Below, in pieces: positions 22,815-58,740 of a DNA stretch of 64,000 bases (the first letter of the stretch is position 1; each line of letters opens with the position of its first letter). The stretch spans positions 1-64,000 of the forward strand of contig JAOAPB010000093.1 in assembly GCA_025462645.1 (NCBI GenBank). Reading direction: 5' to 3'. Both the position numbers and the translations under genes were made by a program. This DNA is from Edaphobacter sp. (GTDB taxonomy: Bacteria > Acidobacteriota > Terriglobia > Terriglobales > Acidobacteriaceae). The notes under the pieces were generated by a model. The model made no database searches and was not told where the DNA came from. It saw only the letters and a program-made list of their open reading frames with translations.

Positions 22815-22817
22815 TCG

Positions 22818-26605: not shown

Positions 26606-26638
26606 GTCTGCTCCCTTTGAACTCGTTACGCGTCGAGT

Positions 26639-27235: not shown

Positions 27236-27287
27236 GGGCTGCTCCTTTAATTACACCTCACAACGCTTCAACAAGTCAGCGATTCAA

Positions 27288-28976: not shown

Positions 28977-28996
28977 GGAGTTCGCCTTTCCCAGCG

Positions 28997-42841: not shown

Positions 42842-43588
42842 TTAGATCTCGATCCGGGAGAAAGAATAGGCACCCATCACGAGGAAGACGGCCGTCATGC
42901 AACCTAGGTAGAAGATATCCAGTAAATAGCTGAAATGCCATAACCCCACTAGCGTTCCCCGCAGCCCGTCCACTCCATACGACACTGGATTGATGATCGT
43001 AATCAGACTCAAGATCTTGGGTAACCGGCTTAGAGGATAGAACGCGCCGGAAAGAAAGGTCATAGGCATCAGTAAACAATTCACCATGAGCTGAAAACCC
43101 TGCATATCTTTGATCACTGAGCCCATTGTAGTACCCAGAGCCGCGAAAGAAATGGCGATCATGGCAATGAAGACGAATGCCGATAGGGCGGCAATCCAGT
43201 GTTGTGGTCGAAAACCAGCGACGATGCATATCAGCAGGATCAATACGCCTTGAACCATGCCTACTGTTGCTCCGCCCAGAGTGCGTCCTATCATGACATA
43301 GAGACGGGGTACCGGTGCAACCAGCGTTGCCTTTAAGAATCCGAATTGGCGATCCCAGAGCATAGCAATGCCCGAGAGTACCGCGCTGAGGAGCACTGTC
43401 ATCCCGATCATGCCCGGCGCCAAGAACTGCAGGTAGCTTCCGTGTCCAGCCTGTTCAAAAACAGGGCTGAAGCCGAAGCCAAAAGCCAACAGAAAAAATG
43501 TGGGTTGAGCTAGCGAGACTGCGACCTGCAACGGCGAGCGAAAGTAGCGCTTGAGTTCCCGCAGCCATAATATGTAAATCGCATTCAT
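42842..43588 (-). CDS. ABC-2 type transporter permease
   Basis: A 248-residue six-helix permease of the DrrB/NodJ-like ABC-2 family. It begins MNAIYILWLRELKRYFRSP and contains QFLAPGMIGMTVL, GGATVGMVQGVLILLICIV, CLLMPMTFLSGAFYPLSRLP and the closing region PVSYGVDGLRGTL, all usual for this family. With the ATPase encoded 3 bp upstream it should export a lipid, glycolipid or lipopeptide. It is the last gene of the nine-gene NRPS/glycosyl/acyltransferase operon, so the exported molecule is most likely that product. Confidence 0.9.
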   Translation of the reverse strand: MNAIYILWLRELKRYFRSPLQVAVSLAQPTFFLLAFGFGFSPVFEQAGHGSYLQFLAPGMIGMTVLLSAVLSGIAMLWDRQFGFLKATLVAPVPRLYVMIGRTLGGATVGMVQGVLILLICIVAGFRPQHWIAALSAFVFIAMIAISFAALGTTMGSVIKDMQGFQLMVNCLLMPMTFLSGAFYPLSRLPKILSLITIINPVSYGVDGLRGTLVGLWHFSYLLDIFYLGCMTAVFLVMGAYSFSRIEI

Positions 43589-43591
43589 CTG

Positions 43592-44377
43592 CTAACTCCT
43601 CCACATCTGGGTAAGTTGTTGTAGCTGGTCAGATGAGTTTGCGCTCTCATCGCGTAAGGAAGAGCCCGTAAAAACCAGAAATGCGTCTTCAAGAGAATCG
43701 GTGTTCGTCCGTGCCTTCAACTGGGTTGCTGTACCTTGTGTGATCAATTGTCCGTGATCCATGATGGCGATTCGATGAGCGACACGATCGACTTCGTCCA
43801 TGTGATGCGTGGTTAAGAAGATTGTCGTGTTCTCGGTTTTGTTCAAATGCTTTACGTGTGTCCAGAGTTGGTTTCGACTCTGTGGATCGAGACCCAATGT
43901 TGGCTCGTCGAGGAAAAGAATCTTTGGACTATGCAACAGTCCGCGGGCAATCTCCAGCCGGCGTTTCATGCCACCGGAAAACTGCTTCACATAATCGCTG
44001 CGCCGGTCCCAGAGTTCAAAGGTCTGGAGCAGTTGCTCGATACGCTCGGCGCGTATTTTTCTTGGCACGTTATAAAGAACTCCATGCAACTCCATGTTCT
44101 CGAATGCTGTTTGTTCTATATCTAGGCTAGGATCCTGAAAAACGATTCCAAACTTCCTCCGTGCCGCGATCTGATGGTGAGCAGGATTTAGTCCGTCCAA
44201 CTCGATTGTGCCGCTGGTCGGACGAAGTATCGTCGTCAACATTTTGATGGTAGTCGTTTTTCCTGCGCCGTTCGGACCAAGAAAAGCAAAGATCTCTCCC
44301 TGCGCTACATCGAAGGAAATGCCCTTTACCGCGGTGAAAGAACCGAAGGTCTTCGTCAGATTGTCTACACGAATCAT
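43592..44377 (-). CDS. ABC transporter ATP-binding protein, DrrA-like
   Basis: A 261-residue ATPase with all motifs: Walker A GPNGAGKTT (about 34-42), Q loop (VFQDPSLD), signature FSGGMKRRLEIARGL (about 133-147), Walker B ILFLDEPTLGLD and the H loop TTHHMDE. It pairs with the permease encoded 3 bp downstream, like DrrAB or NodIJ exporters for hydrophobic natural products. It lies 30 bp after the last acyltransferase gene in the same operon. Confidence 0.93.
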   Translation of the reverse strand: MIRVDNLTKTFGSFTAVKGISFDVAQGEIFAFLGPNGAGKTTTIKMLTTILRPTSGTIELDGLNPAHHQIAARRKFGIVFQDPSLDIEQTAFENMELHGVLYNVPRKIRAERIEQLLQTFELWDRRSDYVKQFSGGMKRRLEIARGLLHSPKILFLDEPTLGLDPQSRNQLWTHVKHLNKTENTTIFLTTHHMDEVDRVAHRIAIMDHGQLITQGTATQLKARTNTDSLEDAFLVFTGSSLRDESANSSDQLQQLTQMWRS

Positions 44378-44407
44378 GTCTTAATAGCGCCTTAGTTGTG
44401 ATTGAAG

Positions 44408-45706
44408 TTAGTCTGCGACTGCAGCGAGCATGAGGGATGGGTCGCCGCCACAGCTGTCCGCCTGTATGACCTCGGACTGCAGCACGGCCATGAATTCTCG
44501 CTTGAACGCCTCCGCCTGACCGCGCCTCATACACTTCTCGTCAGCTACGAAATAGAAGCGCATCTCCCCATTGATCACATAGGGCACTAGTCCCAGCAGC
44601 TTTGTTTTAAAAGAATGTATGTACACCCGGAAGTCTTTTACCTGGATCGGGGCTCCGCCGTCGAGGAGCACAATGTCGCCAAGATTGGATAGCGCGAAGC
44701 CGTCCAACCTGTCGCTAGTTTTCAATGTTTCAAGCAGCCGCACGATCGACTGAGCCTGCCCATTGGACAGTGGGCGAAGCATTTCAAAGAAATGAAAGCG
44801 ATCGGGAATCTTGAGCAGTTCCTGATCGATCAGCCCGCGCATCTCTTTATGGATCGCACGTGCCCTCTCCCAGAATTTCATGTTCGGTGCTTGTTCGGTG
44901 CCCACCTTGAACCCTCCTCCGCCAAAGAACAGCATGTCATTTTTGAGTGCGGCAAAGCGCCTTCTCCGAGGGTCTATTTGATTAGCGATCCACTTCGGAA
45001 ATTTTTCCTTCAATACGCCGAACAGGGCACGTTCCACTATGACCAGGAGGGCGGCATGAACGACGACGCCTTCGGCCTTGCAGCGTTTCTTTAGCGCGGC
45101 CAACAGTGCTCGGTCGGCTTTCCATTCCAGATGGTGTTCGTTGTTGTCTGGCGCTCGGCGTGAGTTCGGAATTAGTAGCAGCAGTCCATTTAACAGGAAC
45201 GCCTTTAGCTTGCGCTTCCACGGTTGTGGAGGTTGGTAATCGCCGATAATGTCCTGCGTGGTGACTGGTTCATAGGGGATCAGGGCCTCGTCAGAGTGGA
45301 GCGACCGCAATACTTCCCTGGCAATGATAATTATGCTCATGCCGTCGCAGATGCGATGTGAGGTTGTGAGCAGCAGATCACTATCTCGATCGGACCGTAG
45401 CCAGACTGCGCGCAACTGGGGCAGATCATATGCAAATTCGGTAGTCAGCTCAGCTTGGCATTCACGCCAATAGTCGCCGTCAGCACCGCGCGGAACAACT
45501 CGCAGCGGAATCTCCGGCGCACTGTTCTCTTCGTAGTATAGGCCGTCCCGTTCCTCTCGAATGAGCGCGCGCAGTGCCGGATGCTTGTGCTGCAAGCGCG
45601 AGAGCGCCGAACGTAACTGATCCAGGCTGAAAGTACCTTCCAACCTCACGACGCAACCGAAATTGCCGTCGAGGATATGCTCGATGTTGGACAGCTTCCG
45701 TCTCAT
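44408..45706 (-). CDS. Free-standing condensation-fold acyltransferase (PapA-like), copy 1
   Basis: A 432-residue protein of the condensation/acyltransferase superfamily, as in NRPS C domains and mycobacterial PapA proteins. The N-terminal half has LRSALSRLQHKHPALRALIR and the catalytic motif as SHRICDGMS: the base His117 and Asp121-Gly122 are kept, the first His of HHxxxDG is Ser. The C-terminal half has GFALSNLGDI, equivalent to the conserved N-x-G segment near the floor loop. There are no carrier, adenylation or membrane segments. It should esterify an acyl chain onto a sugar or other hydroxyl of the product. It is followed by the exporter genes and is a close paralogue of the two upstream copies. 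Confidence 0.85.
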   Translation of the reverse strand: MRRKLSNIEHILDGNFGCVVRLEGTFSLDQLRSALSRLQHKHPALRALIREERDGLYYEENSAPEIPLRVVPRGADGDYWRECQAELTTEFAYDLPQLRAVWLRSDRDSDLLLTTSHRICDGMSIIIIAREVLRSLHSDEALIPYEPVTTQDIIGDYQPPQPWKRKLKAFLLNGLLLLIPNSRRAPDNNEHHLEWKADRALLAALKKRCKAEGVVVHAALLVIVERALFGVLKEKFPKWIANQIDPRRRRFAALKNDMLFFGGGGFKVGTEQAPNMKFWERARAIHKEMRGLIDQELLKIPDRFHFFEMLRPLSNGQAQSIVRLLETLKTSDRLDGFALSNLGDIVLLDGGAPIQVKDFRVYIHSFKTKLLGLVPYVINGEMRFYFVADEKCMRRGQAEAFKREFMAVLQSEVIQADSCGGDPSLMLAAVAD

Positions 45707-45754
45707 GTTATTTTCCTACTCCTGTATCCACACTGAACCATTCGTCATAGGTAT

Positions 45755-47074
45755 TTATTCGGTCGCTGCAGTGAGTATGTGAGAAACATTGTTGACACGG
45801 TCGTCCCCTTTTAAAACCTCGTGCTCCAGCAGGTCCATAAACTCTCTCCTAAGCGTTTCCGCCGGGCAGCGGTTCACCCACTTCTCGTCACTCACGTAGT
45901 AGAAGCGCATGTCCCCGTTGACCGAATAAGGAATCAGACCTAACATTCTGTAGGTAAACGAATGTACGTACAGGCCCAGATCTTTCAGCCGAAACGGAGC
46001 ATCGCTGTCGCTAATCACAACGTTGCCGAGATTGGACAGCCCGAAGCCGTTCCAGTTGCCATTGAATTTCAACTTGTCGCCCATCTGCATGATCCAATCG
46101 AGCAGCCGCACGAGCAACTGGGTCTGTCCGCTCGTTAAGGGGCGAAGCTTTTCGAGGAAATAGAAGCGTCCTGGAATGTCGAGTATTTCCTGTTCTATTT
46201 TCCTTTGTATCTCATCGTTGATCACTCGTGCTCTCGCCCAGAATTCGACCTCCGGTGACTGCGTATTTATCTTGAAGTTTCCCGCGCCAGAGAATACCGT
46301 GTCACTCTTCAGTACGACGAAGCGGCCTCTTCGTAAGTCCATCGGACTTAGTATCCACCTCGGAAACATCTTCCTCCCAAACACAGCGAACAAGGCGCGT
46401 TCCAGCGTGACCGTCAGGGCGGCATGAATAGAGACGCCTTCCGCCTTGCAGCGCTGCCTCAGTGCGTCCGACATCACACGGTCGGCCTTCCATTCAGCAT
46501 GATGTTCCTTATTTGTCGGCGCACGACGCGAGCTTGGGATTAGTCGCAGCAGGCCATTCATCAGGAGCAACGCCAGCTTGTTCCTCCAAGGTTGTGGAGG
46601 ATGGAAGTCGCCGATAAGATCCCGCGTAGTGATCGGCGCATAAGGGGTCAGTTCTTCCTCGGTGTGGAGCGACCGCAATACCTCTCTGACTAGAGTGAAC
46701 ATACTCATGGCATCACAGATGCGGTGCGAGGCCGTCAGCAACAGATCACTCTCCAACTCCGACTGCAGCCAGACCGCGCGCAGGAGAGGTTGGTCATAGC
46801 CAAGGACGGCAGTCAACTCGATCTGGCACTCGCGCCGGCAGTCCTCTTCAGACATGCGCGGGACGATCCGCAGCGGGATCTTCGGCGCACAATCCGCTTC
46901 GTAGTACAGCCCGTCCGATCCTTTACGAATCAGAGCGCGCAATGCCGGGTGCTTGCGTTGTACGCACGCGAGCGCGGAGCGAAGCCGGTCCAGGTTGAAG
47001 CTACCCTCTAACCTGACAAACCAGACCAAATTACTGTCGGCCATTTGCTCAATGATGGATAATCTCTGTCTTAT
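45755..47074 (-). CDS. Free-standing condensation-fold acyltransferase, copy 2, apparent ATA start
   Basis: Paralogue of the genes on either side, 439 residues. The active-site motif reads SHRICDAMS: His117 and Asp121 are kept, but Gly122 is Ala, which may alter or weaken catalysis. For the start, a perfect AGGAGG (47082-47087) lies 7 bases before ATA 47072-47074, and from that codon the chain lines up residue for residue with both paralogues (IRQRLSIIEQ with MRRKLSNIEH and MKRKLSAVEQ). So the ancestral ATG has become ATA. Translation may use ATA at low rate, or an in-frame start at 47167 that overlaps the upstream gene. The reading frame is otherwise intact, which argues for continued use. 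Confidence 0.75.
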   Translation of the reverse strand: MRQRLSIIEQMADSNLVWFVRLEGSFNLDRLRSALACVQRKHPALRALIRKGSDGLYYEADCAPKIPLRIVPRMSEEDCRRECQIELTAVLGYDQPLLRAVWLQSELESDLLLTASHRICDAMSMFTLVREVLRSLHTEEELTPYAPITTRDLIGDFHPPQPWRNKLALLLMNGLLRLIPSSRRAPTNKEHHAEWKADRVMSDALRQRCKAEGVSIHAALTVTLERALFAVFGRKMFPRWILSPMDLRRGRFVVLKSDTVFSGAGNFKINTQSPEVEFWARARVINDEIQRKIEQEILDIPGRFYFLEKLRPLTSGQTQLLVRLLDWIMQMGDKLKFNGNWNGFGLSNLGNVVISDSDAPFRLKDLGLYVHSFTYRMLGLIPYSVNGDMRFYYVSDEKWVNRCPAETLRREFMDLLEHEVLKGDDRVNNVSHILTAATE

Positions 47075-47123
47075 GACCCTGCCTCCTGTAGCTGTATCCA
47101 CAGTGCGTTGGTTGTAATTGATA

Positions 47124-48425
47124 TCATTCCGCGACTCCGGCGAGCATGCGAGAAACGTCTCTGACACTCTCGTCCGTCGATATGACCTGGCGTTGCAGCA
47201 GGTCCATGAACTCTCGCTTGAGCCCGGCGGCCTGGCTGCGACTCAGACATTTCTCATCACCCAGACAGCAAAAACGCATCTCCCCATTGAGCGTGTAGGT
47301 AATCAGGCAGAGCAGCCTGACGTTGAAGGAATGCATGTAAAGGCGCAGGTCTTTCACGTGAAATGGGGCGTCGCTGTCGTTGATTACGATGTTGCCGAGA
47401 TTGGACAATGCGAAGCGGTTCCAGCTGCCATTCAATCTCAACGCGTCACCAAGGCGCACAATCGATTTGACCTGTCCACTCCTGAGGGGAAAGAGCGACT
47501 CTTGAAAGTGGTAACGACTGGGAATATCGAGCATTTCCTGCTCGACCTGCCTATTTATCTCTTGATTGATTGCGCGAGCTTTCTCCCAGAATTCCATGTC
47601 CGGTGTCTGTCCGGTACGCACCTTAAAGCTTCCACCGCCAAAGAACACCATGTCGCTCTTCAGCACACCCAAACGCCCTCGCCTTGCATCAATCGGACTT
47701 TCGATCCATTCTGGCGACTTCTCTTTTCCGAAGATCGTCAACAGGGCACGATCCAGTGCGACCTCTAGAGCAGCATGAACAGAGACACCTTCAATCTTGC
47801 AGCGCTGTTTCAGCGCGTCCAATAGTGCCCGGTCGCCTACCCACTCCAGGTGGTGCTCTTTGTTTTCTAAAGTTCGGCGCGAGTCCGGAACCAGCTGTAG
47901 TAGGCCATTCAACAAAAGCATCATCAGTTTGCGCTTCCACGGTTGCGGAGGCTGATAGCCGCCGATAATATCCCGTGTGGTAATAGGTGCATAAGGGATC
48001 AGTTCCTCATTGCTGTGGAGCGACCGTAGTATTTCTCTCACAATGGTGAGCATGCTCATGCCGTCGCAGATGCTGTGTGAGGTTGTAATTAGAAGATCGC
48101 TCTCCAACTCCGAAGGCAACCAGACCGCGCGCAGCTGCGGCTGGTCATATGCGAAAACGGTAGTTAGCTCCGTACAGCACTCACGCCGGTAGTCGTTTTC
48201 AGCCATGCGTGGTACGACCCGCAGCGGAATCTCTGGTGCACTGTCGTCCTCGTAGTACAAGCCATCTGCTTCCTTGCGAACCAGAACGCGCAGCGCCGGA
48301 TGTTTTCGCTGCACGCGTATGAGAGCCGATCGAAGTTTGTCCGGGCTGAAGCTGCCTTCGAGCCGCACCATATAGACGATATTGGCGTCGATCATTTGCT
48401 CGACGGCTGACAGTTTCCGTTTCAT
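47124..48425 (-). CDS. Free-standing condensation-fold acyltransferase, copy 3
   Basis: A 433-residue paralogue of copies 1 and 2, starting MKRKLSAVEQ and preceded by AGGAG. The motif is SHSICDGMS (His117, Asp121, Gly122). Pairs such as HPALRVLVRKEADGLYYEDD and RFALSNLGNIVINDSDAPFH are shared nearly word for word with the others, so the three genes arose by tandem duplication. Its ATG overlaps the stop of the GT2 gene (ATGA). Three near-copies plus a fourth, divergent enzyme suggest stepwise acylation at different positions. Confidence 0.85.
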   Translation of the reverse strand: MKRKLSAVEQMIDANIVYMVRLEGSFSPDKLRSALIRVQRKHPALRVLVRKEADGLYYEDDSAPEIPLRVVPRMAENDYRRECCTELTTVFAYDQPQLRAVWLPSELESDLLITTSHSICDGMSMLTIVREILRSLHSNEELIPYAPITTRDIIGGYQPPQPWKRKLMMLLLNGLLQLVPDSRRTLENKEHHLEWVGDRALLDALKQRCKIEGVSVHAALEVALDRALLTIFGKEKSPEWIESPIDARRGRLGVLKSDMVFFGGGSFKVRTGQTPDMEFWEKARAINQEINRQVEQEMLDIPSRYHFQESLFPLRSGQVKSIVRLGDALRLNGSWNRFALSNLGNIVINDSDAPFHVKDLRLYMHSFNVRLLCLITYTLNGEMRFCCLGDEKCLSRSQAAGLKREFMDLLQRQVISTDESVRDVSRMLAGVAE

Positions 48426-49402
48426 ACCCCGGCTCCTGTGACGGTCACTGACGAACTCCTGTCAGTGGCAACTGACTTGCCTCCAGACTTTTTACAGAAG
48501 CTGGATAGGTGCGGATGCCGATGTTCAAACGTGCCGAGCAAACCAAACACCCCGTCCAGATAGCCACAGCCAATTGCAGTGATTTTTTTTAACTTCTCCG
48601 GCTCGAACCGCAGCACGCAGAATGCCTGATGAGCTGCTAGAAAACCGCTTAACCAGTGCAGTCCCCATATATGTCGGTATAGGTGCAGACAGTGCACCGC
48701 ATTGCGCGCACCGTAATAACGCCGCCACGCCGCATGATTGGTGGTGTATAACTTGCCGTGCCGTTCGATCTTCCCGGTGGTCTGCTGCATTGTCACTGCA
48801 GCATTCATGTAAACCGGTACGTTCTGGCTCACCGCACGCAGGCTGTATTCAATATCGATGTACTCAATAAAATAGTCTTCCCTGAAAGCGCCGAGCTTGC
48901 GATAGGCAGCGGCGGAGATCGCCGAACCTGAGGAGATGATGCACAGGGTGGAAAACAATCCTTCGTTACGGTCATCGATGCGCAAACGTTTAGGGAAGCG
49001 CTCTCCAGGTGGGAGCACCGGCATACACGTCTGTAGATTGATCTCGTAGATCTTCGGACCGATTAAGAACATGTCTGTGCCGATCTCAGTACAAGCCTTC
49101 ATCATCTTGCCGAAGAACGATGAGTGAATATCCGAATCTTGGTCAAGCAGGAAAATCACGTCGCATTGCTGGGCCAGTAAAGCTTCGACACCCTTGTTGT
49201 AGGCGCCGGCTAGTCCGCCCTCATTGCGATTGAAGATAACCTGCATTCCTTGTTCGCGCAGACATTCGTGCAGACGGAAATCGGCCTCGGGCGAGTTATC
49301 GACAGCGATCAGGTTCGGACAGATCGCATGGGCTTTGGCGAGATTGCATAGGAAGTTCTCGGTAGGATGGTAGAGTACGAAGATCAATCCAAAGCTTTTC
49401 AT
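48422..49402 (-). CDS. Glycosyltransferase family 2, rhamnosyltransferase-like
   Basis: A 326-residue GT-A fold glycosyltransferase. It opens GLIFVLYHPTENFLCNL, followed by LIAVDNSPEA, NEGGLAGAYNKGVEALL and the metal/nucleotide site FLLDQDSDI, the pattern of RfbF/RhlC-type rhamnosyltransferases. EYIDIEYSLRA carries the probable catalytic acid. It has no membrane helix. Both ends overlap its neighbours by four bases (ATGA), so it is made in step with the acyltransferases. Together with the GT1 gene two upstream it recalls the RhlB/RhlC pair that adds two sugars to a lipid. Sugar identity is inference. Confidence 0.85.
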   Translation of the reverse strand: MKSFGLIFVLYHPTENFLCNLAKAHAICPNLIAVDNSPEADFRLHECLREQGMQVIFNRNEGGLAGAYNKGVEALLAQQCDVIFLLDQDSDIHSSFFGKMMKACTEIGTDMFLIGPKIYEINLQTCMPVLPPGERFPKRLRIDDRNEGLFSTLCIISSGSAISAAAYRKLGAFREDYFIEYIDIEYSLRAVSQNVPVYMNAAVTMQQTTGKIERHGKLYTTNHAAWRRYYGARNAVHCLHLYRHIWGLHWLSGFLAAHQAFCVLRFEPEKLKKITAIGCGYLDGVFGLLGTFEHRHPHLSSFCKKSGGKSVATDRSSSVTVTGAGV

Positions 49403-50916
49403 GCTCTTTCCACTCGCGTTGTAGGTGGCCTGTGGGCGATCCCTGGTTTGTACTGCGCGGGCATCGCTACGCAGGTATGCAATATCTCCATGGCCATTTG
49501 CTCTATCGCCTGCGCCTGCGCATAAGGCAGCGAGCGATCATCCGAGACGATCGCAAATTCCAATTGGTCGACAAAGCTGGAAAGAATTACGGTATTGGCC
49601 GGGCTGGGCGACACCATTACCAAAGGGCTATAGACCGCTTCCAACTGAAAACTTCGATATTGTTGCGGCAGATCTACTCGCCCCATATTCGACAGGGTGA
49701 CGTGGCGCACTGCGGGTGCACCCTCGGTATCGGCTACCAGCCTGGTGTACTTGTCGTGCAAACCTTCCAGAGCCATCAGATGCTCGTAAAGGCCGGCGCC
49801 AAGACGATCAATCCGACGCGTCATGTCTGCCTTGATTGCCCGCGTTCTCGCCCAAAAATCGCCAACAGACATCTTTTGGGGCTCTGGAAGCTCTTTCATG
49901 CGCAAGGCAACACCTGGAGCAAGTCCGAACATCGCATCCGCACGCAACTGCGGCAAGAATCTGCGCGCACTCACCATCGTGTAGGTTTTACGGAGCGCCT
50001 GTGTTCCGCGCACAATCCGGAATGCCTGCATGAAAGCTACGCTCACCGCGGCGAGTACAGTGACATGCTCTGACCTGCAACGCTCGACCAGCGCCAGTGT
50101 GGCCGCTTTAGCGACGCACCAGCGATGGAAGTACATCTGTTCGGCAGTTATCCCCGGATTGACCGGCTTGCGATGCCCACGGGGCTTCAAAAAGAGGGCC
50201 AGCTTGAGCAGGCCAACCTTCCGACGCACCCGGCGACGGAAGTGTCGGTTATGCAGTTGAGTTGCGGGCACGAGATCTTCAATCGCACCAAGTGCCTCAT
50301 AGGAGCCGAGGTCCTCATCGGGCCGGTCATAGGTGTTCAGAAATTCACGCAGAAAATTAATACCGGAGTACCCATCGCAAATACAGTGATGACCAACCAG
50401 AATCAGTTCATTGATCTCACCGGCCCGTAGCCATATCATCCGCACCAATGGCTCGCGGCGGCTCGCGTCAAACGGCGTTACCCATTCGCGACGGACCTCG
50501 ACCTGCCAATCGTCTTCACCTTTTCGCCCAACGACACGCAATGGAATCGGTGTTGGCCGTTCCTGCAGCACGAAACAAGGGCCGCTAACGTCATCCTCAA
50601 CCACACAGCGCAGCAGCGGGTGCTTGGCCTGCACCCGGGCCAGCGCTTGCTTCACTTGTTCTTCCTCTAGCTCACCGACCAGCTTAATGGTGAACACGCT
50701 GGTGAACGGTATTAGTCCCTCTCGGTACATCGTCCTTTCCGGTAACAGCAGCGGCCGCGACCGCGTGCTGCTCTGTACAGGTGCGTTCGTGAGAGCAAAT
50801 ATTGCCGGCCTCTGTTGCAGACTGTGTGGCTCCCGCCTGCAACAAAACCTCGTTTTCCCGAGCGCCGGTACCGCCGCACCGAACCCTCTCAGCAGATAGG
50901 GCCAACCTTGTTTCAC
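49399..50916 (-). CDS. Free-standing condensation-fold acyltransferase, divergent fourth member
   Basis: A 505-residue condensation-superfamily protein with the full motif HHCICDGYS (His176, His177, Asp181, Gly182). HVTLSNMGRVDLPQ marks the C-terminal lobe. I place the start at GTG 50916: it forms a GTGA overlap with the preceding gene and has AGGA 8 bases before it. The first ~65 residues are basic and rich in Arg/Cys with no clear fold; ATG 50730 (MYREGLIPFT) would be the minimal start. It is only distantly related to the three tandem copies, so it probably acts on another acceptor. It lies between the two glycosyltransferase genes. Confidence 0.8.
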   Translation of the reverse strand: MKQGWPYLLRGFGAAVPALGKTRFCCRREPHSLQQRPAIFALTNAPVQSSTRSRPLLLPERTMYREGLIPFTSVFTIKLVGELEEEQVKQALARVQAKHPLLRCVVEDDVSGPCFVLQERPTPIPLRVVGRKGEDDWQVEVRREWVTPFDASRREPLVRMIWLRAGEINELILVGHHCICDGYSGINFLREFLNTYDRPDEDLGSYEALGAIEDLVPATQLHNRHFRRRVRRKVGLLKLALFLKPRGHRKPVNPGITAEQMYFHRWCVAKAATLALVERCRSEHVTVLAAVSVAFMQAFRIVRGTQALRKTYTMVSARRFLPQLRADAMFGLAPGVALRMKELPEPQKMSVGDFWARTRAIKADMTRRIDRLGAGLYEHLMALEGLHDKYTRLVADTEGAPAVRHVTLSNMGRVDLPQQYRSFQLEAVYSPLVMVSPSPANTVILSSFVDQLEFAIVSDDRSLPYAQAQAIEQMAMEILHTCVAMPAQYKPGIAHRPPTTRVERA

Positions 50917-52250
50917 GCTATGGTCCTTCCTGCCGTCTCGATCGCTGCATCCACCGCGAGCGCCGGCAGCAGATCCCATGCGCGCAGACAACGTAGGGCT
51001 TCTCCGATACCATCCTCTGCCCGTATCGCACGTCCCAACTCCGCCGCCTTCTGGATCATCGCCGGTTGTTCAGTAGCCGCCAGAGCTGAGGCCAGCTCAT
51101 TGGCGGTCATACGCTTGCGATCTAACGCCGGGGGGGCAACGTTCAGGTGGTTAAGGCAGCTCGCCCAGAATGGCTGATCACCAAAGAATGGCACAATGAT
51201 TGAAGGGATCCCCGCACGCGCGGCTGCAGCAGTGGTGCCGGCCCCGCCGTGATGTACAGCGGCGGACATAAGCGGAAATAGACAGTCATGCGGCGCGTGG
51301 CGCAAACAGAAGACCTGCTTATCCTGTTGGCCTTCATCACCGTCCAGGCCGCCCCAGCCGGTGGCCAGAACCGCACGCTGACCACTCATTTTCACAGCGT
51401 CGAGCACAGTCTGCGTAAACGCGCTCGCATTGCTGCTGACCATGCTCCCAAAGCCGATGTAAACCGGCTTCGGTCCCGCCGCAAGGAATCTACTCAACGC
51501 CTCGGATGGGCGCCATTGAATCTGATCGAAAAACCAATACCCGGTGACCTGTGAGTTATTCGTCCAATCCGCCGGTCTTGGCAACACATGCTGACTGAAA
51601 CCATTGATCACCTTTGCCCTATGTAAATCACGGAAGTAAGGACCATACCATGGATACAGGGGCAACCCAAGTTGTGGTCGAACGATGTCATTGATCGCGG
51701 GACGCATCACGTCCCATAACAATTTGAAGAACAGATAATGGGCCCCAAGGCTCAGTACACCGGGAAGTTTTCGCTGCGAACTGATCAACATGATCGGCGG
51801 CAATATTCTTGACAGCGTACAAGGCTGCAGCCGAGCAATCGCGAACGGAATCGCTAGCGCTTCAGATAATGCTTTGGCCAGCATGATACTGTTGCTAACC
51901 CCGATCAACAGCCCTGCCCCTTCGCTTGCAGCAAGCCCCTCCTGCACCCAGTTGACGGCCCAACCCGCATAGCGTTCGCGAAAGATGCGGATCATGGCGC
52001 TGATTTTCAAGCCCTGGTCACCGATCGATCGATCGGATTCCAGCATGGCCTGAAAATCAGCGGTTAGCGGAAAAAACTCCAGGCCAGCCTGGCGCACTAA
52101 CTCGGCAAAGTTTTCGCTGGTTGCAATGCGTACCGGATAACCGGCGCGATGCAACCCCTGGCCCAAGGCCACACAAGGGCGGACATCGCCTTGCGTGCCG
52201 ATGGCGAAGATTACGACAGGTTTCTGCATGTTTACTGAGCTCTCAGACAT
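50913..52250 (-). CDS. Glycosyltransferase family 1 (MGT/RhlB-like)
   Basis: A 445-residue GT-B glycosyltransferase of the UGT/MGT type. It starts KPVVIFAIGTQGDVRPCVAL with the acceptor-side GTQGDVRP of sterol/lipid and macrolide glucosyltransferases. The C-terminal donor site is VHHGGAGTTAAAARAGIPSI, then VPFFGDQPFW (His of HHGGAG binds the nucleotide sugar phosphate; D-Q binds the sugar). It follows the NRPS gene with an 8-bp overlap; ATG 52229 is an alternative start. It should transfer the first hexose (glucose or rhamnose) to a hydroxy-lipid or lipopeptide. Confidence 0.9.
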   Translation of the reverse strand: MSESSVNMQKPVVIFAIGTQGDVRPCVALGQGLHRAGYPVRIATSENFAELVRQAGLEFFPLTADFQAMLESDRSIGDQGLKISAMIRIFRERYAGWAVNWVQEGLAASEGAGLLIGVSNSIMLAKALSEALAIPFAIARLQPCTLSRILPPIMLISSQRKLPGVLSLGAHYLFFKLLWDVMRPAINDIVRPQLGLPLYPWYGPYFRDLHRAKVINGFSQHVLPRPADWTNNSQVTGYWFFDQIQWRPSEALSRFLAAGPKPVYIGFGSMVSSNASAFTQTVLDAVKMSGQRAVLATGWGGLDGDEGQQDKQVFCLRHAPHDCLFPLMSAAVHHGGAGTTAAAARAGIPSIIVPFFGDQPFWASCLNHLNVAPPALDRKRMTANELASALAATEQPAMIQKAAELGRAIRAEDGIGEALRCLRAWDLLPALAVDAAIETAGRTIA

Positions 52251-55200
52251 AAACTGGGATGATTGATTCCATTTCTCCGTGAACGATTGGCGAAACCTCT
52301 ATCACCGACTGACCATCCAGGAGTGCGAGACGCCGCTGCAATATCTTGCCGATCTGAGCTGCCGGCACCGGATCCAGCACTAACTCGTGATGGCAGGCCA
52401 GTTCGTGCACTTCAATCTTGCGACTCAGGAACGGCCGCCATGCCGATGGACTACGGTTGAGAATGTCATCCACATTACCTGTGATCTCCGTGGCATGGAA
52501 ATACACCAAATCAAGATCCACCTTGCGCGGCACGTGCTGGCGCGCCAGCCTCAGATTATTGAGCATTACCGCGGATAGGTGCTTAATAAACTCCGGACTG
52601 CTTTTCATAATTTCCTTAGCCAGTTTCATGATTCCCTGAGTCAAGGGAATCGAACGAACGTTATCGGGGTGCAGTAAAAACTCTCCTAATTCCTTCAGGG
52701 TTTGTGGCATCTCATCGTGGCCGAGATGAATGTCGAGGAAACTCAGTGCCGCTCTTACCTCCTCAGGCCCTGTAAGTGGGCGAGTGAGTTCCCTTTCCGT
52801 GAACAGATGGCTGTCAATCATCGCAAGCAACTCCACCTGCAGACCCTGTGCTTGCATCTGCTCGGCGATTGAGTGGCCGATCAGGCCACCCAGCGAACGA
52901 CCAATCAGTCGATACGGACCCTCGGGCTGAATGCGCCGGATCTGTGTCAGATAGTCGGTCGCTATCTCCTCTATGTTGGCCGGTAGGCTCGCGCCACCAA
53001 GCAGTCCGCGCGACTGCAGCCCATAGATCGGTATTGTCGGGTCTAGGTGCCGTAGCAAGCCGGAGAAGCCGAGGCTGATACCAGCCATCGGATGGATGCA
53101 GAACAACGGCCGCTGCGCGCCTTTGGCGACTTTGCGTAGCGGCAGCACGACACCCAGTGGGTCAAAGTATTCGCTGCTGAGGCGCTCGACTAGAGCCGCA
53201 AGATGGGCGATGGTTGGGGCTTCGAACAAACTGCCTAGCGGCAAATCCATTTCGAAGTGTGCGGGAAAGTGCGCGACCATCTCGGCTGCGTTCAGCGAAT
53301 CGCCGCCCAGGTCGAAAAAATTGTCGTACAAGCTCACCCGCTCGACTCCCAAAATATGCTGCCACAACACTGCCAGTTTTTTTTCAGTCGGTGAGACCGG
53401 CTCAACATAGATGTCCCGTCGGGTTTCTTCTATTAATGGCAGCGCCTTGCGATCGAGCTTGCCGTTCGGCGTCAGCGGCATGGCATCGATCACCATAAAG
53501 CTGGCAGGGATCATGTAGTTCGGCAAGCGACCGGCCAGGAACACACGCAGCGTGTCAATATCGATTAAGCTTTCGCTTGGTGCCACCAAATAAACTGCCA
53601 GTGATATTGTGCCCTCTCCATCGCGCTGCGCGACCACAGCCGTTTCTGCGACCGTCGCGTGCTGCAGCAACATATTTTCAATCTCCCCTAGCTCGACCCG
53701 GTGGCCGTTGATCTTCACTTGGTTATCCGCACGACCGATGAATTCCAGCAGTCCATTGTCTGTCCAGCGCACCAGATCGCCGGTACGATACATGCGGCTG
53801 TCATCGTCGACGAACGGGTTTGCAAGAAAGCGTTCCTCAGTGAGCTTTGACTGGCGCAGGTAACCTTTAGCTACGCCAGCGCCACCGATGTACAGTTCGC
53901 CGACTGCACCCGTAAAGACCAGCTGACGATCATCGTCCAACACATAGAGTTGGGTATTGAGGATTGGACGGCCAATCGGTGGCGGGGCTATACCTATTTC
54001 GTCCAGTTCAAACGCGGTTGACCAGACCGTGGTTTCGGTCGGGCCATAAAATTGAGTAACGCGCGTGGCCATACTTTTGAGCTTTGCGGCCAAGTCGGTG
54101 CCCAGCGCTTCGCCTCCTATCAGCACATGCACACCTTTAAGATCCGTCTCGGGACTGGCAAGAAGGATGCGCCATAGTGATGGCGTTGCCTGCATATGTG
54201 TCACACCGCTGTGCTTGATCATTCGCGCCAGCGCCGGCGGGTTGTGTACCAACTCACTGCCGGCAATTATCACACGCGCTCCAACCGTCAATGGCAGGTA
54301 CAACTCGAGCCCGGCAATATCGAATATGACCGTGGTCACTGCCAGAAAACGATCGTTCGCCGTCAGCATCAACTGACGCTGCATCCCCTGCAAAAAATTT
54401 CCGAGATTACGGTGCGTAATCTCCACACCCTTCGGGCGTCCGGTCGATCCGGAGGTGTAGAGCACATAAGCGGTGCCTTCCGGCGTACTCAAATCTAATC
54501 TCTTTCCGGTACCGATCAGAGGAGTATCTAGATGTTCAGGCTCCACCAGCCTGAAACCGCCCCGAGAGAAGCGCGCATGGATCTGCGGCTGGGCGATCAT
54601 TGCGATTGGCGCAGCGTCGTCCAGCACTAGCGCAGTCCTCTCTATTGGACTGTCCAGGTCGATAGGCAAATAGGCCGCGCCGGTGCGGATAATCGCTAGC
54701 AGCGCAATTAGCAATTGCTCACTACGCGGCAACGCCACTGCGACGATGTCGCCTGGCTTAACCCCATGAGCGATCAGTTGGTGAGCCTGCCGTAAGCTGC
54801 GGTCGTGCAGTTGCTGATAGCTTACCGTGGTGTCCTCAAACACCACGGCCGGCGCGCTCGGGGTCATTGCTGCCCGTTGTGCGACGAGCGCGGGCAGTCC
54901 GGTGTATGGCAGCGCAGTCGCCGTGTCGTTCCAGTCAATCAGCAGGCGATGGCGCTCCTCGTCGCCCATAACGTCAAGCTGTCGCAGTGGGATGTCGGGG
55001 TTGGAGAGCACCTGCTCAATCAGGCGTGTCAACCTACGCCGGTGTTCGTCCAACTCGACCGCGCCGTACAGCGAAGGATTGGCGTCCAGATCGAAACGCA
55101 ACCCAGTGTCAGTGCCGCGGTCGTACACGAACACCATAAAATCTTCCGCTGAACTATTCGACAAATTATGCGAGATGGTCGCCGCTCCGTCGAAATTGAG

Positions 55201-56277
55201 CCGGTAATCGAATGGCTCGATGTTCACGTTGAGCCATGCAATGTTCTGATCCCGACTGAACAGTCCGAGATCACGACGCAGATCTTCGTAACGATACAGT
55301 TGATGGCGCAGTGCCTGACGCACAGTTCGCGAAACCTGCGCGAACAAGTCAGCAGCCGTCATCTCCGGCGTGAATGACGCACGGATTGGCATCACATTCG
55401 CAGATACGGAAACGGAGCGACGCAGGGTTGAGTTGAGGCGCCCGGATACCGGCATACCGAATACCAAGTCGCTGACGCCGGTCGCGCGATGATAATAGGC
55501 CGCGATCAAGCTGATCAGTACCTGCGGCACGCTTGCACCAGCGGTTTTACCGAGCTCAGCGAGCTGCCGCGCAGTCTCGGCGGACAGATGACCGACACTA
55601 CGTAGCAAGTTGCTACTCAGGCCATGCCGGTGACGGTTCCGTGATAATGTCACCGCCTCGGGCATCTGGTCCAGTTGTTGGTGCCAGTACTCACGATCGC
55701 GCTGGAAGCGGTCCGAATTACGATAGCTAGTTTCGGCTTCCACCAACGCCTCCACTTTACAAAAGCGGTTCGGTACCGGCTCACTGCCCTGCGCATAAGT
55801 CGTATACAACTCCGCCAGACGTCGAGCAACCAAGCCTCCACCGTACCCGTCGTAAACGATATGATGGGCGCGCTGATACCAAAAATAGCGATCGTCTGCT
55901 GCCTTGAGCAAGGCTGAAACCCACAACGGGTCGTTAGCTAGGTCGACCGGTCGGGACAATTCACCCATCATCCACGCTTCGATCGCAGCCCACGGATCTG
56001 CTTCGAGACTCATATCGAGGTAGGGAAAATCGCCCTCGTAGACCGACCGCACGATTTGTATCGGTCTTCCGTCCTGTTCGACAATGCGTACGCGCAGTTC
56101 ATCGGCCTCGGCAATTAGCTGGCGAAGTGCCTGCTGGAACATCTCCGGCTTGATCGGACCGCAGATTTCGACCGCTTCGGCAATGTTCAAATTGGCGCCC
56201 GGCGCAATTTTCTGACTGACCCATAGACCGCGCTGCGCAGTGGTCAACGGCAGCGAATTATGTCCATACCCGTTCAT
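52243..56277 (-). CDS. Single-module NRPS (C-A-T-TE), predicted glycine-activating
   Basis: A 1344-residue nonribosomal peptide synthetase. The condensation domain (about 5-440) has HHIVYDG (138-144). The adenylation domain (about 460-950) has YTSGSTGRPKG, YGPTETT, GELYIGG, YRTGD and NGKLDR. By alignment to GrsA I read the specificity residues as D-I-L-Q-L-G-F-V-W-K, very close to the glycine code DILQLGLIWK. The carrier domain has DNFFDLGGDSL (phosphopantetheine Ser994). The thioesterase has GRSLGG (Ser1128), Asp1155 and His near 1296. An initial C domain without a preceding module suggests N-acylation of glycine with a fatty acid or uptake of a lipid acceptor. It leads the operon and needs a PPTase from elsewhere. 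Confidence 0.92.
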   Translation of the reverse strand: MNGYGHNSLPLTTAQRGLWVSQKIAPGANLNIAEAVEICGPIKPEMFQQALRQLIAEADELRVRIVEQDGRPIQIVRSVYEGDFPYLDMSLEADPWAAIEAWMMGELSRPVDLANDPLWVSALLKAADDRYFWYQRAHHIVYDGYGGGLVARRLAELYTTYAQGSEPVPNRFCKVEALVEAETSYRNSDRFQRDREYWHQQLDQMPEAVTLSRNRHRHGLSSNLLRSVGHLSAETARQLAELGKTAGASVPQVLISLIAAYYHRATGVSDLVFGMPVSGRLNSTLRRSVSVSANVMPIRASFTPEMTAADLFAQVSRTVRQALRHQLYRYEDLRRDLGLFSRDQNIAWLNVNIEPFDYRLNFDGAATISHNLSNSSAEDFMVFVYDRGTDTGLRFDLDANPSLYGAVELDEHRRRLTRLIEQVLSNPDIPLRQLDVMGDEERHRLLIDWNDTATALPYTGLPALVAQRAAMTPSAPAVVFEDTTVSYQQLHDRSLRQAHQLIAHGVKPGDIVAVALPRSEQLLIALLAIIRTGAAYLPIDLDSPIERTALVLDDAAPIAMIAQPQIHARFSRGGFRLVEPEHLDTPLIGTGKRLDLSTPEGTAYVLYTSGSTGRPKGVEITHRNLGNFLQGMQRQLMLTANDRFLAVTTVIFDIAGLELYLPLTVGARVIIAGSELVHNPPALARMIKHSGVTHMQATPSLWRILLASPETDLKGVHVLIGGEALGTDLAAKLKSMATRVTQFYGPTETTVWSTAFELDEIGIAPPPIGRPILNTQLYVLDDDRQLVFTGAVGELYIGGAGVAKGYLRQSKLTEERFLANPFVDDDSRMYRTGDLVRWTDNGLLEFIGRADNQVKINGHRVELGEIENMLLQHATVAETAVVAQRDGEGTISLAVYLVAPSESLIDIDTLRVFLAGRLPNYMIPASFMVIDAMPLTPNGKLDRKALPLIEETRRDIYVEPVSPTEKKLAVLWQHILGVERVSLYDNFFDLGGDSLNAAEMVAHFPAHFEMDLPLGSLFEAPTIAHLAALVERLSSEYFDPLGVVLPLRKVAKGAQRPLFCIHPMAGISLGFSGLLRHLDPTIPIYGLQSRGLLGGASLPANIEEIATDYLTQIRRIQPEGPYRLIGRSLGGLIGHSIAEQMQAQGLQVELLAMIDSHLFTERELTRPLTGPEEVRAALSFLDIHLGHDEMPQTLKELGEFLLHPDNVRSIPLTQGIMKLAKEIMKSSPEFIKHLSAVMLNNLRLARQHVPRKVDLDLVYFHATEITGNVDDILNRSPSAWRPFLSRKIEVHELACHHELVLDPVPAAQIGKILQRRLALLDGQSVIEVSPIVHGEMESIIPVYV

Positions 56278-56853: not shown

Positions 56854-58740
56854 ATGTGCGGAATCGTTGCGATACTAGGGCAGGAGAAGAACCCTTCCCG
56901 TGAGGCCGTTGCCCGGGGACTAAAGAGCATTCACCACCGAGGACCAGATGCCAGTCGGATTTGGAAGTCCGATGGAGGCCACGCCATTTTGGGGCACAAG
57001 CGACTTAGCATCCTTGACCTGAATACGGGTGACCAGCCGCTCACCAATGAAGATAAGACCTTGCATGTTGTCGTGAACGGTGAGCTATACGGATTTGAGG
57101 AGATTCGCAAAGATCTTGAGACGCGGGGACATTGCTTTCGCACCCGATCAGATAGCGAAATTGTTCTTCATCTGTATGAAGAGTATGGCCCAGCATGCGT
57201 AAGTCACCTGAGAGGAGAATTTTCCTTCGTTCTTTGGGACGAGAAAAAACGAACACTCTTTGCAGCTCGAGATCGCTTTGGAATTAAGCCATTATTCTAT
57301 TCTCACAGCAACGGTCAGCTATCGTTTGCTTCAGAAGTCAAGGCCCTTCATGCGATCGGTATTGAAGCTGGTTGGAACGAGGACGTCTTGGTGCAGATGC
57401 TGGGACTGCACAGCTCGAATTCTGGAAAATCCAAATTTCGCCATATCAAAACCGTACCTCCGGGCCATTACATAGTAGCCAACCGAGAGAATGTAACCGT
57501 TACTCAATACTGGGACTTTGACTTTCCTCGAGAGGGAGAGTTGGACGTTCTTCCCGATCGAGAATATGCCGAAAAATTTAGATCCCTTCTCGACGAGTCG
57601 GTTCGTATTCGGATGCGAGCCGACGTTCCGGTTGGATGTTATCTTAGCGGCGGAATTGATTCATGTAGCATCTTGGCCCTGATGGCCCGCTTCTCCAGTT
57701 CACCGGTTCGTGCTTTTACTCTGAAGTTCGATAATCCCGCATTGGATGAATCGATACTCGCGCAGGAAATGGCCAGTCACGCGGGTACGGCCTGCGATAT
57801 TATCCCGGTAAGTCAGGCAGATCTCGCCGATAACTTCAGCGACGCGATATGGCACGCGGAAACTATATTTGCCAACCCGCATGGTGTAGCCAAGTTTTTG
57901 CTGAGCCGTGCCGTTCGGAATGCGGGTTACAAAGTTGTACTGACCGGAGAAGGCGCCGACGAGATTGTCGCGGGCTATCCTCACTTTAGCCAAGATTTTT
58001 CCCGCAGTTCAGGAGCGGACACAGATTCTATGCGTCTCCTTCCTGAGAAAAATACCGATCCTCGCGCCATACTTCCCACGGACGATCGCGTATCGCTACT
58101 CCTGATGGAACGGCTTGGCTATTTTCCTGCCTTCTTGGATCCGTTGCAGGAAATAGGCAGAAAGATCGCAGATTTCTTCCAGGTCTCAGCCCCATTCGAT
58201 AAGATACTTTTGTCGTGCTTGGATGACATGAACATCGTTGGTCAATTAAAAGGGCGACATGCTGTCAACCAAAGTCTTTACCTTTGGAATAAGACGTATC
58301 TGCCTGAGTATATTTTGACCACACTTGGGGACCGAATGGAGATGGCACATTCTGTCGAAGGTAGAGTGCCATTCCTGGACCATCACCTGGTAGAGTTCAC
58401 GCGTTCTCTCCCCGTGAAGCAAAAGATTAACGGCACGATTGAAAAGTTCGTCCTGCGCGAAGCAATGCGGCCATTTTTGCCGCAGGCAGCGTACGAGCGG
58501 AAGAAACACACGTTCGTCGCTCCTCCCTTGTTGTCGAAGGCGGACACGCCTTTGCACATGATGATGCAGGACACTCTTCGTGGAGGGGCTTTGAACAGGA
58601 TCCCACTCGTAGACAAAAAAGCGGTAGCCAGAATTTTGGACGTTCTTCCAAGGCTTGATGCCGATGCCAAGGCGGTCTGGGAGATCCCTCTGATGGAACT
58701 TTTCAGTGCAGCAGTCTTAGCTGACAAGTTCCACCTGTGA
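56854..58740 (+). CDS. Asparagine synthetase, glutamine-hydrolysing (AsnB-type)
   Basis: A 628-residue amidotransferase. After Met comes the nucleophile Cys2 (MCGIVAILG), then the glutaminase domain (about 2-215: HRGPDASRIW, GHKRLSILDL, FNGELY-type VVNGELYGFEE, RSDSEIVLHLYEEYG, RDRFGIKPLFY). The synthetase domain has the pyrophosphate loop SGGIDS (about 270) and TGEGADEIVAGYPHF. GGAG lies 9 bases before ATG 56854. The enzyme normally converts aspartate to asparagine with glutamine and ATP; relatives in biosynthetic clusters amidate other carboxylates. It is divergent to the NRPS operon, so it could amidate the lipid-glycine carboxyl, but housekeeping use is equally possible. Confidence 0.9.
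   Translation: MCGIVAILGQEKNPSREAVARGLKSIHHRGPDASRIWKSDGGHAILGHKRLSILDLNTGDQPLTNEDKTLHVVVNGELYGFEEIRKDLETRGHCFRTRSDSEIVLHLYEEYGPACVSHLRGEFSFVLWDEKKRTLFAARDRFGIKPLFYSHSNGQLSFASEVKALHAIGIEAGWNEDVLVQMLGLHSSNSGKSKFRHIKTVPPGHYIVANRENVTVTQYWDFDFPREGELDVLPDREYAEKFRSLLDESVRIRMRADVPVGCYLSGGIDSCSILALMARFSSSPVRAFTLKFDNPALDESILAQEMASHAGTACDIIPVSQADLADNFSDAIWHAETIFANPHGVAKFLLSRAVRNAGYKVVLTGEGADEIVAGYPHFSQDFSRSSGADTDSMRLLPEKNTDPRAILPTDDRVSLLLMERLGYFPAFLDPLQEIGRKIADFFQVSAPFDKILLSCLDDMNIVGQLKGRHAVNQSLYLWNKTYLPEYILTTLGDRMEMAHSVEGRVPFLDHHLVEFTRSLPVKQKINGTIEKFVLREAMRPFLPQAAYERKKHTFVAPPLLSKADTPLHMMMQDTLRGGALNRIPLVDKKAVARILDVLPRLDADAKAVWEIPLMELFSAAVLADKFHL

What the first reader, a model, noticed from the sequence alone, without database searches (positions are those of the whole stretch)
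42842..56277. Nine-gene NRPS/two-glycosyltransferase/four-acyltransferase/exporter operon, probable new glyco-lipopeptide system
Nine minus-strand genes overlap or lie within 50 bp of each other: one-module NRPS, GT1, condensation-fold acyltransferase, GT2, three tandem acyltransferases, ABC ATPase and permease. One amino acid plus two sugars plus up to four separate acyl transfers is a combination I do not know from a described pathway. The enzymes have clear roles but together imply an exported, multiply acylated glycolipid with an amino-acid part. Family assignments come from visible motifs; the product is inference.
Basis: partly seen in the sequence, partly recalled or inferred. Interest (0 to 1): 0.88.

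Follow-up and report, generated by a model that had tools for sequence, protein, structure and literature searches.

The report
Glycine glycolipid operon with four acyltransferases
A soil acidobacterium carries an operon that probably builds a fatty-acid-plus-glycine lipid, decorates it with two sugars and several further acyl chains, and exports it; its core resembles a gene pair that may make an oil-eating marine bacterium's surfactant, but the rest of the pathway seems undescribed.

Summary
The nine-gene minus-strand operon (42842-56277) is real and its frames are open: a C-A-PCP-TE synthetase, GT1, a condensation-family acyltransferase (AT1), GT2, three more (AT2-4), and a DrrAB-like ABC pair. 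The adenylation pocket reads DILQLGFVWK, glycine-like, and is kept in related loci. The synthetase overlaps GT1 by 8 bp, the arrangement published for short synthetase/glycosyltransferase pairs of Xanthomonas, one with a Gly signature, and seen in Alcanivorax borkumensis, which makes glucosyl-tetra(3-hydroxyacyl)-glycine by an unproven pathway. So the core is a known kind. The extension GT1-AT1-GT2-AT2 recurs in nine other loci from Acidobacteriota and Xanthomonadales; my searches showed no description of it. Catalytic His and Asp are invariant in 26 of 26 acyltransferases; AT4 is predicted to have the condensation/PapA fold; pN/pS is 0.15-0.38. Best reading: an acyl-glycine glycolipid with two sugars and several acylations, exported or flipped. 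Weak points: no Sfp-type activating enzyme found in this genome; sugars and acylation sites are inferred; Alcanivorax sequences were not reached. New variant of a known kind.

The parts
52243..56277 (-). Single-module NRPS, C-A-PCP-TE, 1344 aa; A-domain pocket DILQLGFVWK (Gly-like); HHIVYDG (C), YTSGSTG (A), GGDS (PCP), GRSLG (TE) motifs present
50913..52250 (-). GT1 glycosyltransferase (best PDB matches: sterol 3-beta-glucosyltransferases), first sugar; overlaps the NRPS 3' end by 8 bp
49399..50916 (-). AT1: condensation-superfamily acyltransferase (HHCICDG); probable start GTG 50916
48422..49402 (-). GT2 glycosyltransferase, RhlC-like (TIGR01556 rhamnosyltransferase 156.6 bits, below cutoff 200.55), second sugar
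47124..48425 (-). AT2: condensation-superfamily acyltransferase (SHSICDG)
45755..47167 (-). AT3: condensation-superfamily acyltransferase with an N-terminal extension and SHRICDA (Gly to Ala), both shared with the middle tandem copy of L025
44408..45706 (-). AT4: condensation-superfamily acyltransferase (SHRICDG); AlphaFold2 model mean pLDDT 88.5, condensation/PapA fold
43592..44377 (-). ABC transporter ATPase, DrrA-like (298.3 bits, cutoff 312.45)
42842..43588 (-). ABC-2 permease, DrrB-like (181.8 bits, cutoff 223.05)

Best explanation
The operon makes an N-acyl-glycine glycolipid. Inferred steps: the A domain loads glycine on the PCP; the C domain joins a fatty (probably 3-hydroxy-) acyl group from ACP or CoA to it; the TE releases acyl-glycine. 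GT1 glycosylates the lipid hydroxyl, as RhlB does in rhamnolipid synthesis (recalled). AT1 acylates that sugar. The RhlC-like GT2 adds a second sugar, perhaps L-rhamnose. AT2, AT3 and AT4 acylate the second sugar, perhaps one hydroxyl each, since a terminal rhamnose has three free ones. The DrrAB-like pair moves the product across the inner membrane, to the cell surface or medium. Shown: genes, domain content, catalytic motifs, recurring order, purifying selection, a Gly-like pocket. Inferred: acyl donor, sugar identity, acylation sites, location, and function (a surfactant or envelope lipid).
For: Gly-like pocket in the window, and a full or partial code of the same type in 18 of 19 loci that hold a related NRPS with a window-type GT1 (one of the 18 with one change; the nineteenth gave no code), while most of the more distant NRPSs read the same way differ. 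Published precedent: short C-A-PCP-TE genes overlapping a GT gene by 4 and 8 bp, one with a Gly signature, C domains in the starter clade, and a similar set in A. borkumensis; the window overlap is 8 bp, as in L068, L025/L069, L070 and Xanthomonas L081. In Xanthomonas loci L081, L083, L087 and L091 the NRPS is 48-49% and GT1 47-49% identical to the window's. A. borkumensis makes glucosyl-tetra(3-hydroxyacyl)-glycine, and ABO_1783 is RhlB-like. GT2 is 39% identical to a protein in a same-genus operon that I read by eye as rhlA-rhlB-rhlC; that protein scores 197.0 on TIGR01556, cutoff 200.55. An RmlC-family gene is in the window's genome. In nine of nine loci where the stretch is visible, an AT1-type gene lies between GT1 and GT2 and an AT2-type after GT2. 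His and Asp of the motif are invariant in 26 of 26 ATs; 18 of 26 match PapA_C and 14 of 26 AATase at E<=1, mostly weak. Purifying selection. Dyella tabacisoli has a penicillin amidase gene inside the operon, which would fit an amide in the product.
Against: In the window's genome (96% complete) PF01648 found one sound match, AcpS-sized (149 aa), and one weak match with an internal stop; Granulicella dw_53 and S156 gave one match each, although NRPSs usually need an Sfp-type enzyme (recalled). GT2, the ATs and the ABC proteins all score below the NCBIfam cutoffs of the families named, so sugar, acceptor and cargo are not fixed by homology. The top fold match of AT4 is AzeD, titled a dehydratase, so the fold alone does not prove acyl transfer. 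A Gly-type NRPS of this clade is not always paired: Zavarzinia L078 (46%, DILQMGLIWK) has no window-type GT1 within 10 kb. The link between ABO_1782-1784 and the glycine-glucolipid is my inference, the ABO_1784 signature was not seen, and those sequences were not compared. No match to an RhlA-like protein in this genome at E<=1e-10. Granulicella dw_53 has only a 44% ATPase match, so that ABC pair is not part of every operon.
Confidence: 0.55

Rival explanations
1. The acyltransferases build an ester-linked oligo(3-hydroxyacyl) chain on the acyl-glycine, as in the four-unit chain of the A. borkumensis lipid, rather than acylating sugars.
For: The A. borkumensis lipid has four ester-linked 3-hydroxy acids, and this operon has four ATs. 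PapA5 (1q9j), an ester-forming enzyme (recalled), is among the fold matches.
Against: AT number varies between operons: two, three or four. The eight Xanthomonas loci annotated show NRPS and GT1 but no window-type AT at E<=1e-5 in the DNA held. AT1 and AT2 types sit directly behind GT1 and GT2.
Confidence: 0.25
2. A siderophore-type synthetase: the NRPS is a diverged EntF/MxcG making an aryl-capped product, later glycosylated.
For: The best whole-protein NCBIfam matches are MxcG (770.7 bits) and EntF (684.1 bits).
Against: Both are far under their cutoffs (2300, 2400). The pocket is Gly-like, unlike the Ser-like codes (recalled) of L061 and L093. None of the nine operon proteins is an aryl-activating enzyme or aryl carrier; the rest of the genome was not searched for one beyond.
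Confidence: 0.05
3. A structural envelope glycolipid rather than a released metabolite; the DrrAB-like pair only flips it across the inner membrane.
For: A review passage says the glycine-containing A. borkumensis lipid is associated with the envelope, and the title of Cui 2022, seen in a reference list, says it is resident to the cell wall. dw_53, Dyella OK004 and D. marensis operons have no adjacent window-type ABC pair.
Against: The sequence does not separate flipping from export. The operon is patchy: tandem-type AT at E<1e-50 in 4 of 37 same-genus genomes, one of them broken, so it is not a core envelope function.
Confidence: 0.3
4. The operon is silent or partly dead in this strain because the NRPS cannot be activated.
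For: No intact Sfp-type PPTase found with PF01648 in G000. Royer et al. suggest that short NRPSs may have kept their function only where the PPTase was kept. Granulicella S190 holds a decayed remnant.
Against: All nine window frames are open, and selection is purifying also against L025/L069 and L068, whose genomes likewise gave a single PF01648 match. AcpS may serve the PCP, or a diverged PPTase may have been missed.
Confidence: 0.1

Closest known systems
Short NRPS/glycosyltransferase pairs of Xanthomonas albilineans (XALc_0364/0365, XALc_1145/1144) and the Alcanivorax borkumensis set ABO_1784/1783/1782 (PMC3849588, passages and one section read)
   Same: One C-A-PCP-TE module of about 4.0 kb; GT gene overlapping the 3' end by 4-8 bp; Gly signature in XALc_0364; Xanthomonas pairs in hand are 47-49% identical in both proteins (L081, L083, L087, L091)
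   Different: The window adds AT1, GT2, AT2-4 and an ABC pair, and has no PPTase gene among the nine
Glycine-glucolipid of Alcanivorax borkumensis (PMC10684412, PMC10710537, PMC6669457; passages read)
   Same: Glycine plus a sugar on a fatty chain; an RhlB-like GT beside a short NRPS
   Different: One glucose and four ester-linked 3-hydroxy acids; no second sugar in the passages read; genes not proven
Rhamnolipid pathway RhlA-RhlB-RhlC (recalled)
   Same: Two sequential glycosyltransferases of GT1 and RhlC type
   Different: NRPS instead of RhlA; several acyltransferases; no RhlA-like match in the genome at E<=1e-10
Mycobacterial PapA acyltransferases and glycopeptidolipid clusters (recalled, no paper read)
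   Same: Condensation-fold acyltransferases (fold match to PapA5); NRPS plus GTs plus acyltransferases plus transporter logic
   Different: Single Gly-type module; ABC-2 rather than MmpL transporter; far below the PapA5 model cutoff
Fungal mannosylerythritol lipid acyltransferases MAC1/MAC2 (PMC10619693, passages read)
   Same: Separate acyltransferases of a fold related to BAHD enzymes and NRPS domains act on a glycolipid; catalytic His shown by mutation
   Different: Fungal, other sugar core, no amino acid; MAC2 lacks the Asp of HxxxD

Membership tests
Short NRPS/overlapping GT pair (Royer 2013) | Single C-A-PCP-TE module of about 4.0 kb | tested here: met
   4035 bp (4047 and 4011 bp in the paper)
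Short NRPS/overlapping GT pair (Royer 2013) | GT gene overlapping the NRPS 3' end by 4-8 bp | tested here: met
   8 bp
Short NRPS/overlapping GT pair (Royer 2013) | Sequence homology to Xanthomonas pairs | tested here: met
   L081, L083, L087, L091: NRPS 48-49%, GT1 47-49%; the X. albilineans genes themselves were not compared
Short NRPS/overlapping GT pair (Royer 2013) | Gly-type adenylation signature (one of the two X. albilineans copies) | tested here: met
   DILQLGFVWK against DILQLGLIWK of Xanthomonas L081, L083, L091; that DILQLGLIWK means Gly is recalled
Short NRPS/overlapping GT pair (Royer 2013) | Starter-clade C domain | not tested
   no C-domain tree built
Short NRPS/overlapping GT pair (Royer 2013) | PCP-specific PPTase in the genome | tested here: inconclusive
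   one 149-aa AcpS-sized match and one weak match with an internal stop; assembly about 96% complete
Alcanivorax glycine-glucolipid pathway | Product glucosyl-oligo(3-hydroxyacyl)-glycine | not testable with these tools
   needs chemistry
Alcanivorax glycine-glucolipid pathway | Homology to ABO_1782-1784 | not tested
   sequence not reached: record not held, not among the 80 loci kept of 148, no match recognised in the class sample of 369 genomes
Rhamnolipid RhlABC | RhlA supplying HAA | tested here: not met
   no match in G000 at E<=1e-10 to the RhlA-like protein of L028; that protein was named by eye
Rhamnolipid RhlABC | RhlC-type second rhamnosyltransferase | tested here: inconclusive
   TIGR01556 156.6 bits, cutoff 200.55
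EntF/MxcG siderophore synthetases | Equivalog score | tested here: not met
   684.1 of 2400 and 770.7 of 2300 bits
PapA5 acyltransferases | NCBIfam PapA5 model cutoff 396 | tested here: not met
   best 36.9 bits (AT1)
DrrAB transporters | NCBIfam drrA and drrB cutoffs | tested here: not met
   298.3 of 312.45 and 181.8 of 223.05 bits
Condensation/PapA fold superfamily | Fold and HxxxD motif | tested here: met
   AT4 model pLDDT 88.5 with fold matches to C domains and PapA5; His and Asp invariant in 26 of 26

The most novel reading that the evidence does not exclude
A new lipid class: a glycine-capped lipid bearing a disaccharide, in which each sugar is acylated by its own acyltransferase type and the number of AT2-type paralogues (one in Dyella and Lysobacter, three here) sets how many hydroxyls of the terminal sugar are acylated, so that the acyl pattern can be read from gene count.
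Probability: 0.25. Interest if true: 0.72.

Novelty: new variant of a known kind. Interest (0 to 1): 0.52.

Why it matters
The enzymes for the Alcanivorax glycine-glucolipid were called unknown in a 2019 review and the complete pathway not elucidated in a 2023 paper. The loci compared here suggest that Gly-type short NRPSs overlapping a GT1 gene, in Xanthomonadales and Acidobacteriota, belong to that chemistry, and they include named, possibly culturable strains (Granulicella mallensis, Dyella) for a direct test. If right, acidobacteria make multiply acylated glycine glycolipids, and the copy number of tandem acyltransferases may predict structure.

Tried and rejected
Rejected: asparagine synthase 56854-58740 as part of the operon: divergent, 576 bp away, and no match to it at E<=1e-5 in the 32 neighbourhoods annotated. 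Rejected: canonical rhamnolipid operon, for lack of an RhlA-like match. Rejected: EntF/MxcG siderophore enzyme. Led nowhere: Rfam and tRNA scans of the window (none); solved-structure search with GT2 (none at E<=0.001); plasmid search with the C domain (103 records, all below 60% identity; three viewed, none with the operon); the tree did not resolve the tandem AT2-type copies. The single-module NRPSs of G074 and G715, seen as possible relatives, have no window-type GT1 in the 20 kb and 16 kb read. A class sample of 369 genomes around Xanthomonas G440 gave only G440 itself and G715 at E<=1e-60.

Literature: ten searches. Those that could have shown an operon of this kind are 21, 37, 62, 63, 84 and 85; none of the listed papers did by title and abstract start, but I saw 20 of 213, 3 of 3 (37), 12 of 405 (62), 2 of 2 (63), 2 of 2 (84) and 12 of 45 (85). 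The library is open-licence only.
Full report
OBSERVATION. Nine minus-strand ORFs occupy 42842-56277. Pfam gives NRPS = C, A, PCP and TE domains; GT1 = GT28/UDPGT; GT2; four Condensation-family proteins, AT2-4 just below the gathering score; ABC ATPase; ABC-2 permease. Neighbours overlap or lie within 48 bp. AT1 probably starts at GTG 50916, with a 4-bp overlap with GT1. The operon's G+C (54.9%) is close to the rest of the window (53.9%).

ORGANISM. The window's genome is in the same genus as G035 and G018. G035's contig has the length of a Granulicella sp. dw_53 contig (186,688 bases) and G018's that of an Edaphobacter sp. RYN_7 contig (7,120 bases), so the host is most likely a Granulicella/Edaphobacter-type acidobacterium (inference).

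THE SYNTHETASE. Motifs HHIVYDG, YTSGSTG, GGDS and GRSLG are present. Reading ten pocket residues gives DILQLGFVWK; positions were set by motif, and the match to the glycine code DILQLGLIWK is recalled, not from a database. Of 80 loci fetched (the best of 148 relatives) I annotated 32; 19 of these hold a related NRPS with a window-type GT1. Of the 19, 18 gave a full or partial code: 15 full ones fit DILQ[LM]G[FL][VI]WK, two partial ones (L082, L085) agree as far as read, and L087 has one change (DILQLVLIWK); L084 gave none. Most other NRPSs read in that call differ, e.g. DVWHISLVDK or DAMLLGAICK; others with a Gly-like code are L077, L078 and the first module of L103. L078 (Zavarzinia) has no window-type GT1 within 10 kb, so the pairing is not universal.

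THE PRECEDENT. A 2013 paper (PMC3849588, section read) describes two short C-A-PCP-TE genes in Xanthomonas albilineans that overlap a glycosyltransferase gene at the 3' end by 4 and 8 bp, one with a glycine signature and one with an unknown one, C domains in the starter clade, function unknown, and a similar set in Alcanivorax borkumensis (ABO_1784, 1783, and 1782 = PPTase). The window overlap is 8 bp; Granulicella S156, dw_53, mallensis and Xanthomonas cissicola also show 8 bp, Edaphobacter RYN_7 4 bp, and Dyella OK004 an 11-bp gap by the ORF starts used. A. borkumensis makes glucose linked to four 3-hydroxy acids and glycine; ABO_1783 was proposed as RhlB-like. A 2019 review calls the enzymes unknown; a 2023 paper says the complete pathway is not elucidated. 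Joining the gene set to the lipid is my inference. A glucose-free trimeric congener led other authors to suggest the order glycine, acyl units, glucose.

THE EXTENSION. In nine loci (L067-L074, L076) the order is NRPS, GT1, one or two AT1-type genes, GT2, one to three AT2-type genes. L066, L075 and L086 end too early to show it all. Copy numbers (AT1+AT2): window, L067, L069, L071 1+3 (the last AT of L067 and L069 reaches the end of the locus; dw_53's is complete in L025); L068 and L070 2+1; L072, L073, L074, L076 1+1. Granulicella mallensis and S156 go on with the ABC pair and a further GT1; no close copy of that GT1 lies downstream of the permease in the window. Dyella tabacisoli has a penicillin amidase between GT1 and AT1. 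The eight Xanthomonas loci show NRPS plus GT1 without window-type AT or GT2; in L081 the next ORF looks by eye like an OafA-type membrane acyltransferase, but NCBIfam gave no match. The tree separates AT1 and AT2 types (100/100) and leaves most tandem copies unresolved. Over the whole NRPS, Dyella and Lysobacter are 57-65% identical to the window, Acidobacteriota relatives 67-75%, which suggests transfer between phyla (inference).

ACYLTRANSFERASES. His117 and Asp121 (AT4 numbering) are invariant in 26 sequences. AT4 model mean pLDDT 88.5. Foldseek: AzeD 8s6l (TM 0.76, titled a dehydratase), NRPS condensation domains, PapA5 1q9j (0.65/0.70), TRI3. 18 of 26 members match PapA_C and 14 of 26 AATase at E<=1, mostly weak. 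In the fungal glycolipid enzyme PtMAC2p, of related fold, mutating the His cut activity over 1000-fold (passages).

SUGARS AND EXPORT. GT1's best solved matches are sterol 3-beta-glucosyltransferases. GT2 scores 156.6 bits on TIGR01556, below the cutoff of 200.55, and is 39% identical to a protein scoring 197.0 in an operon of G011 that I read by eye as rhlA-rhlB-rhlC (NCBIfam gave only other alpha/beta hydrolases for the first). An RmlC-family gene is present in 6 of 6 genomes searched. The ABC pair is DrrAB-like, below cutoff. In three Bryobacterales genomes the single ATPase match at E<=1e-60 (68-70%) lies on another contig than the operon, beside ORFs that look like regulators in the stretches read; dw_53 has only a 44% match.

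DISTRIBUTION AND SELECTION. Tandem-type AT at E<1e-50 occurs in 4 of 37 same-genus genomes (own included) and 0 of 24 others; one of the four (G029) is a broken remnant. In a phylum sample of 396 genomes, which lists neither G018 nor G035 among its matches, the C domain at over 60% identity appears only in the window's genome and in that remnant. pN/pS is 0.15-0.38 in 27 comparisons with four relatives; synonymous sites are near saturation, AT4 was compared with one relative only, and the pairing of tandem copies is uncertain, so the ratios are rough.

DOUBTS. The PPTase question, no RhlA-like match, cutoffs not reached, unpaired L078, and no direct Alcanivorax comparison. I give 0.55 to the glycine glycolipid reading and less to the acylation details.

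Noticed in passing
L073:15285-17558: Penicillin amidase (PF01804, 491.7 bits) inside the Dyella tabacisoli operon, between GT1 and AT1; might cut the acyl-glycine amide.
   Followed up: partly
L028:8480-14233 (G011:C1): Operon read by eye as rhlA-rhlB-rhlC-MFS with a convergent AT1-like acyltransferase in a same-genus genome: a possible acylated rhamnolipid. A 68% match to its RhlA-like protein in Granulicella S156.
   Followed up: partly
L027:12483-15738 (G029:C8): Decayed remnant of the operon in Granulicella S190: about 121 NRPS codons run into one AT and the ABC pair, with AT and permease matches split between frames.
   Followed up: no
L082, L084, L085: Three Xanthomonas short NRPS genes match in separate pieces, as if broken, in line with Royer's suggestion that function was not kept everywhere.
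   Followed up: no
L174:9001-17809: Variovorax plasmid: an NRPS with two matching module stretches, followed 10 bp later by an annotated family 1 glycosyltransferase that does not match the window's GT1 at E<=1e-3; a parallel NRPS-GT pairing.
   Followed up: no
L062, L063 (G029:C8 245001-285000): Large multi-module NRPS locus in Granulicella S190; one of its C domains is the second-best match (36%) in the phylum sample.
   Followed up: no
L179:1-2654 (G018 MAG, Edaphobacter RYN_7): ABC pair (77% and 73%) at a contig start, followed by an ORF that looks by eye like another GT1, as in Granulicella mallensis and S156.
   Followed up: no
window 21990-30055: Respiratory cluster: CtaG, a cytochrome b/cytochrome c fusion, c-type cytochromes, COX1, COX2.
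   Followed up: no
window 10389-16259: RND efflux system: outer membrane protein, HlyD-type adaptor, AcrB-type pump.
   Followed up: no
window 56854-58740: Divergent asparagine synthase (TIGR01536, above cutoff) upstream of the operon; judged not part of it.
   Followed up: partly
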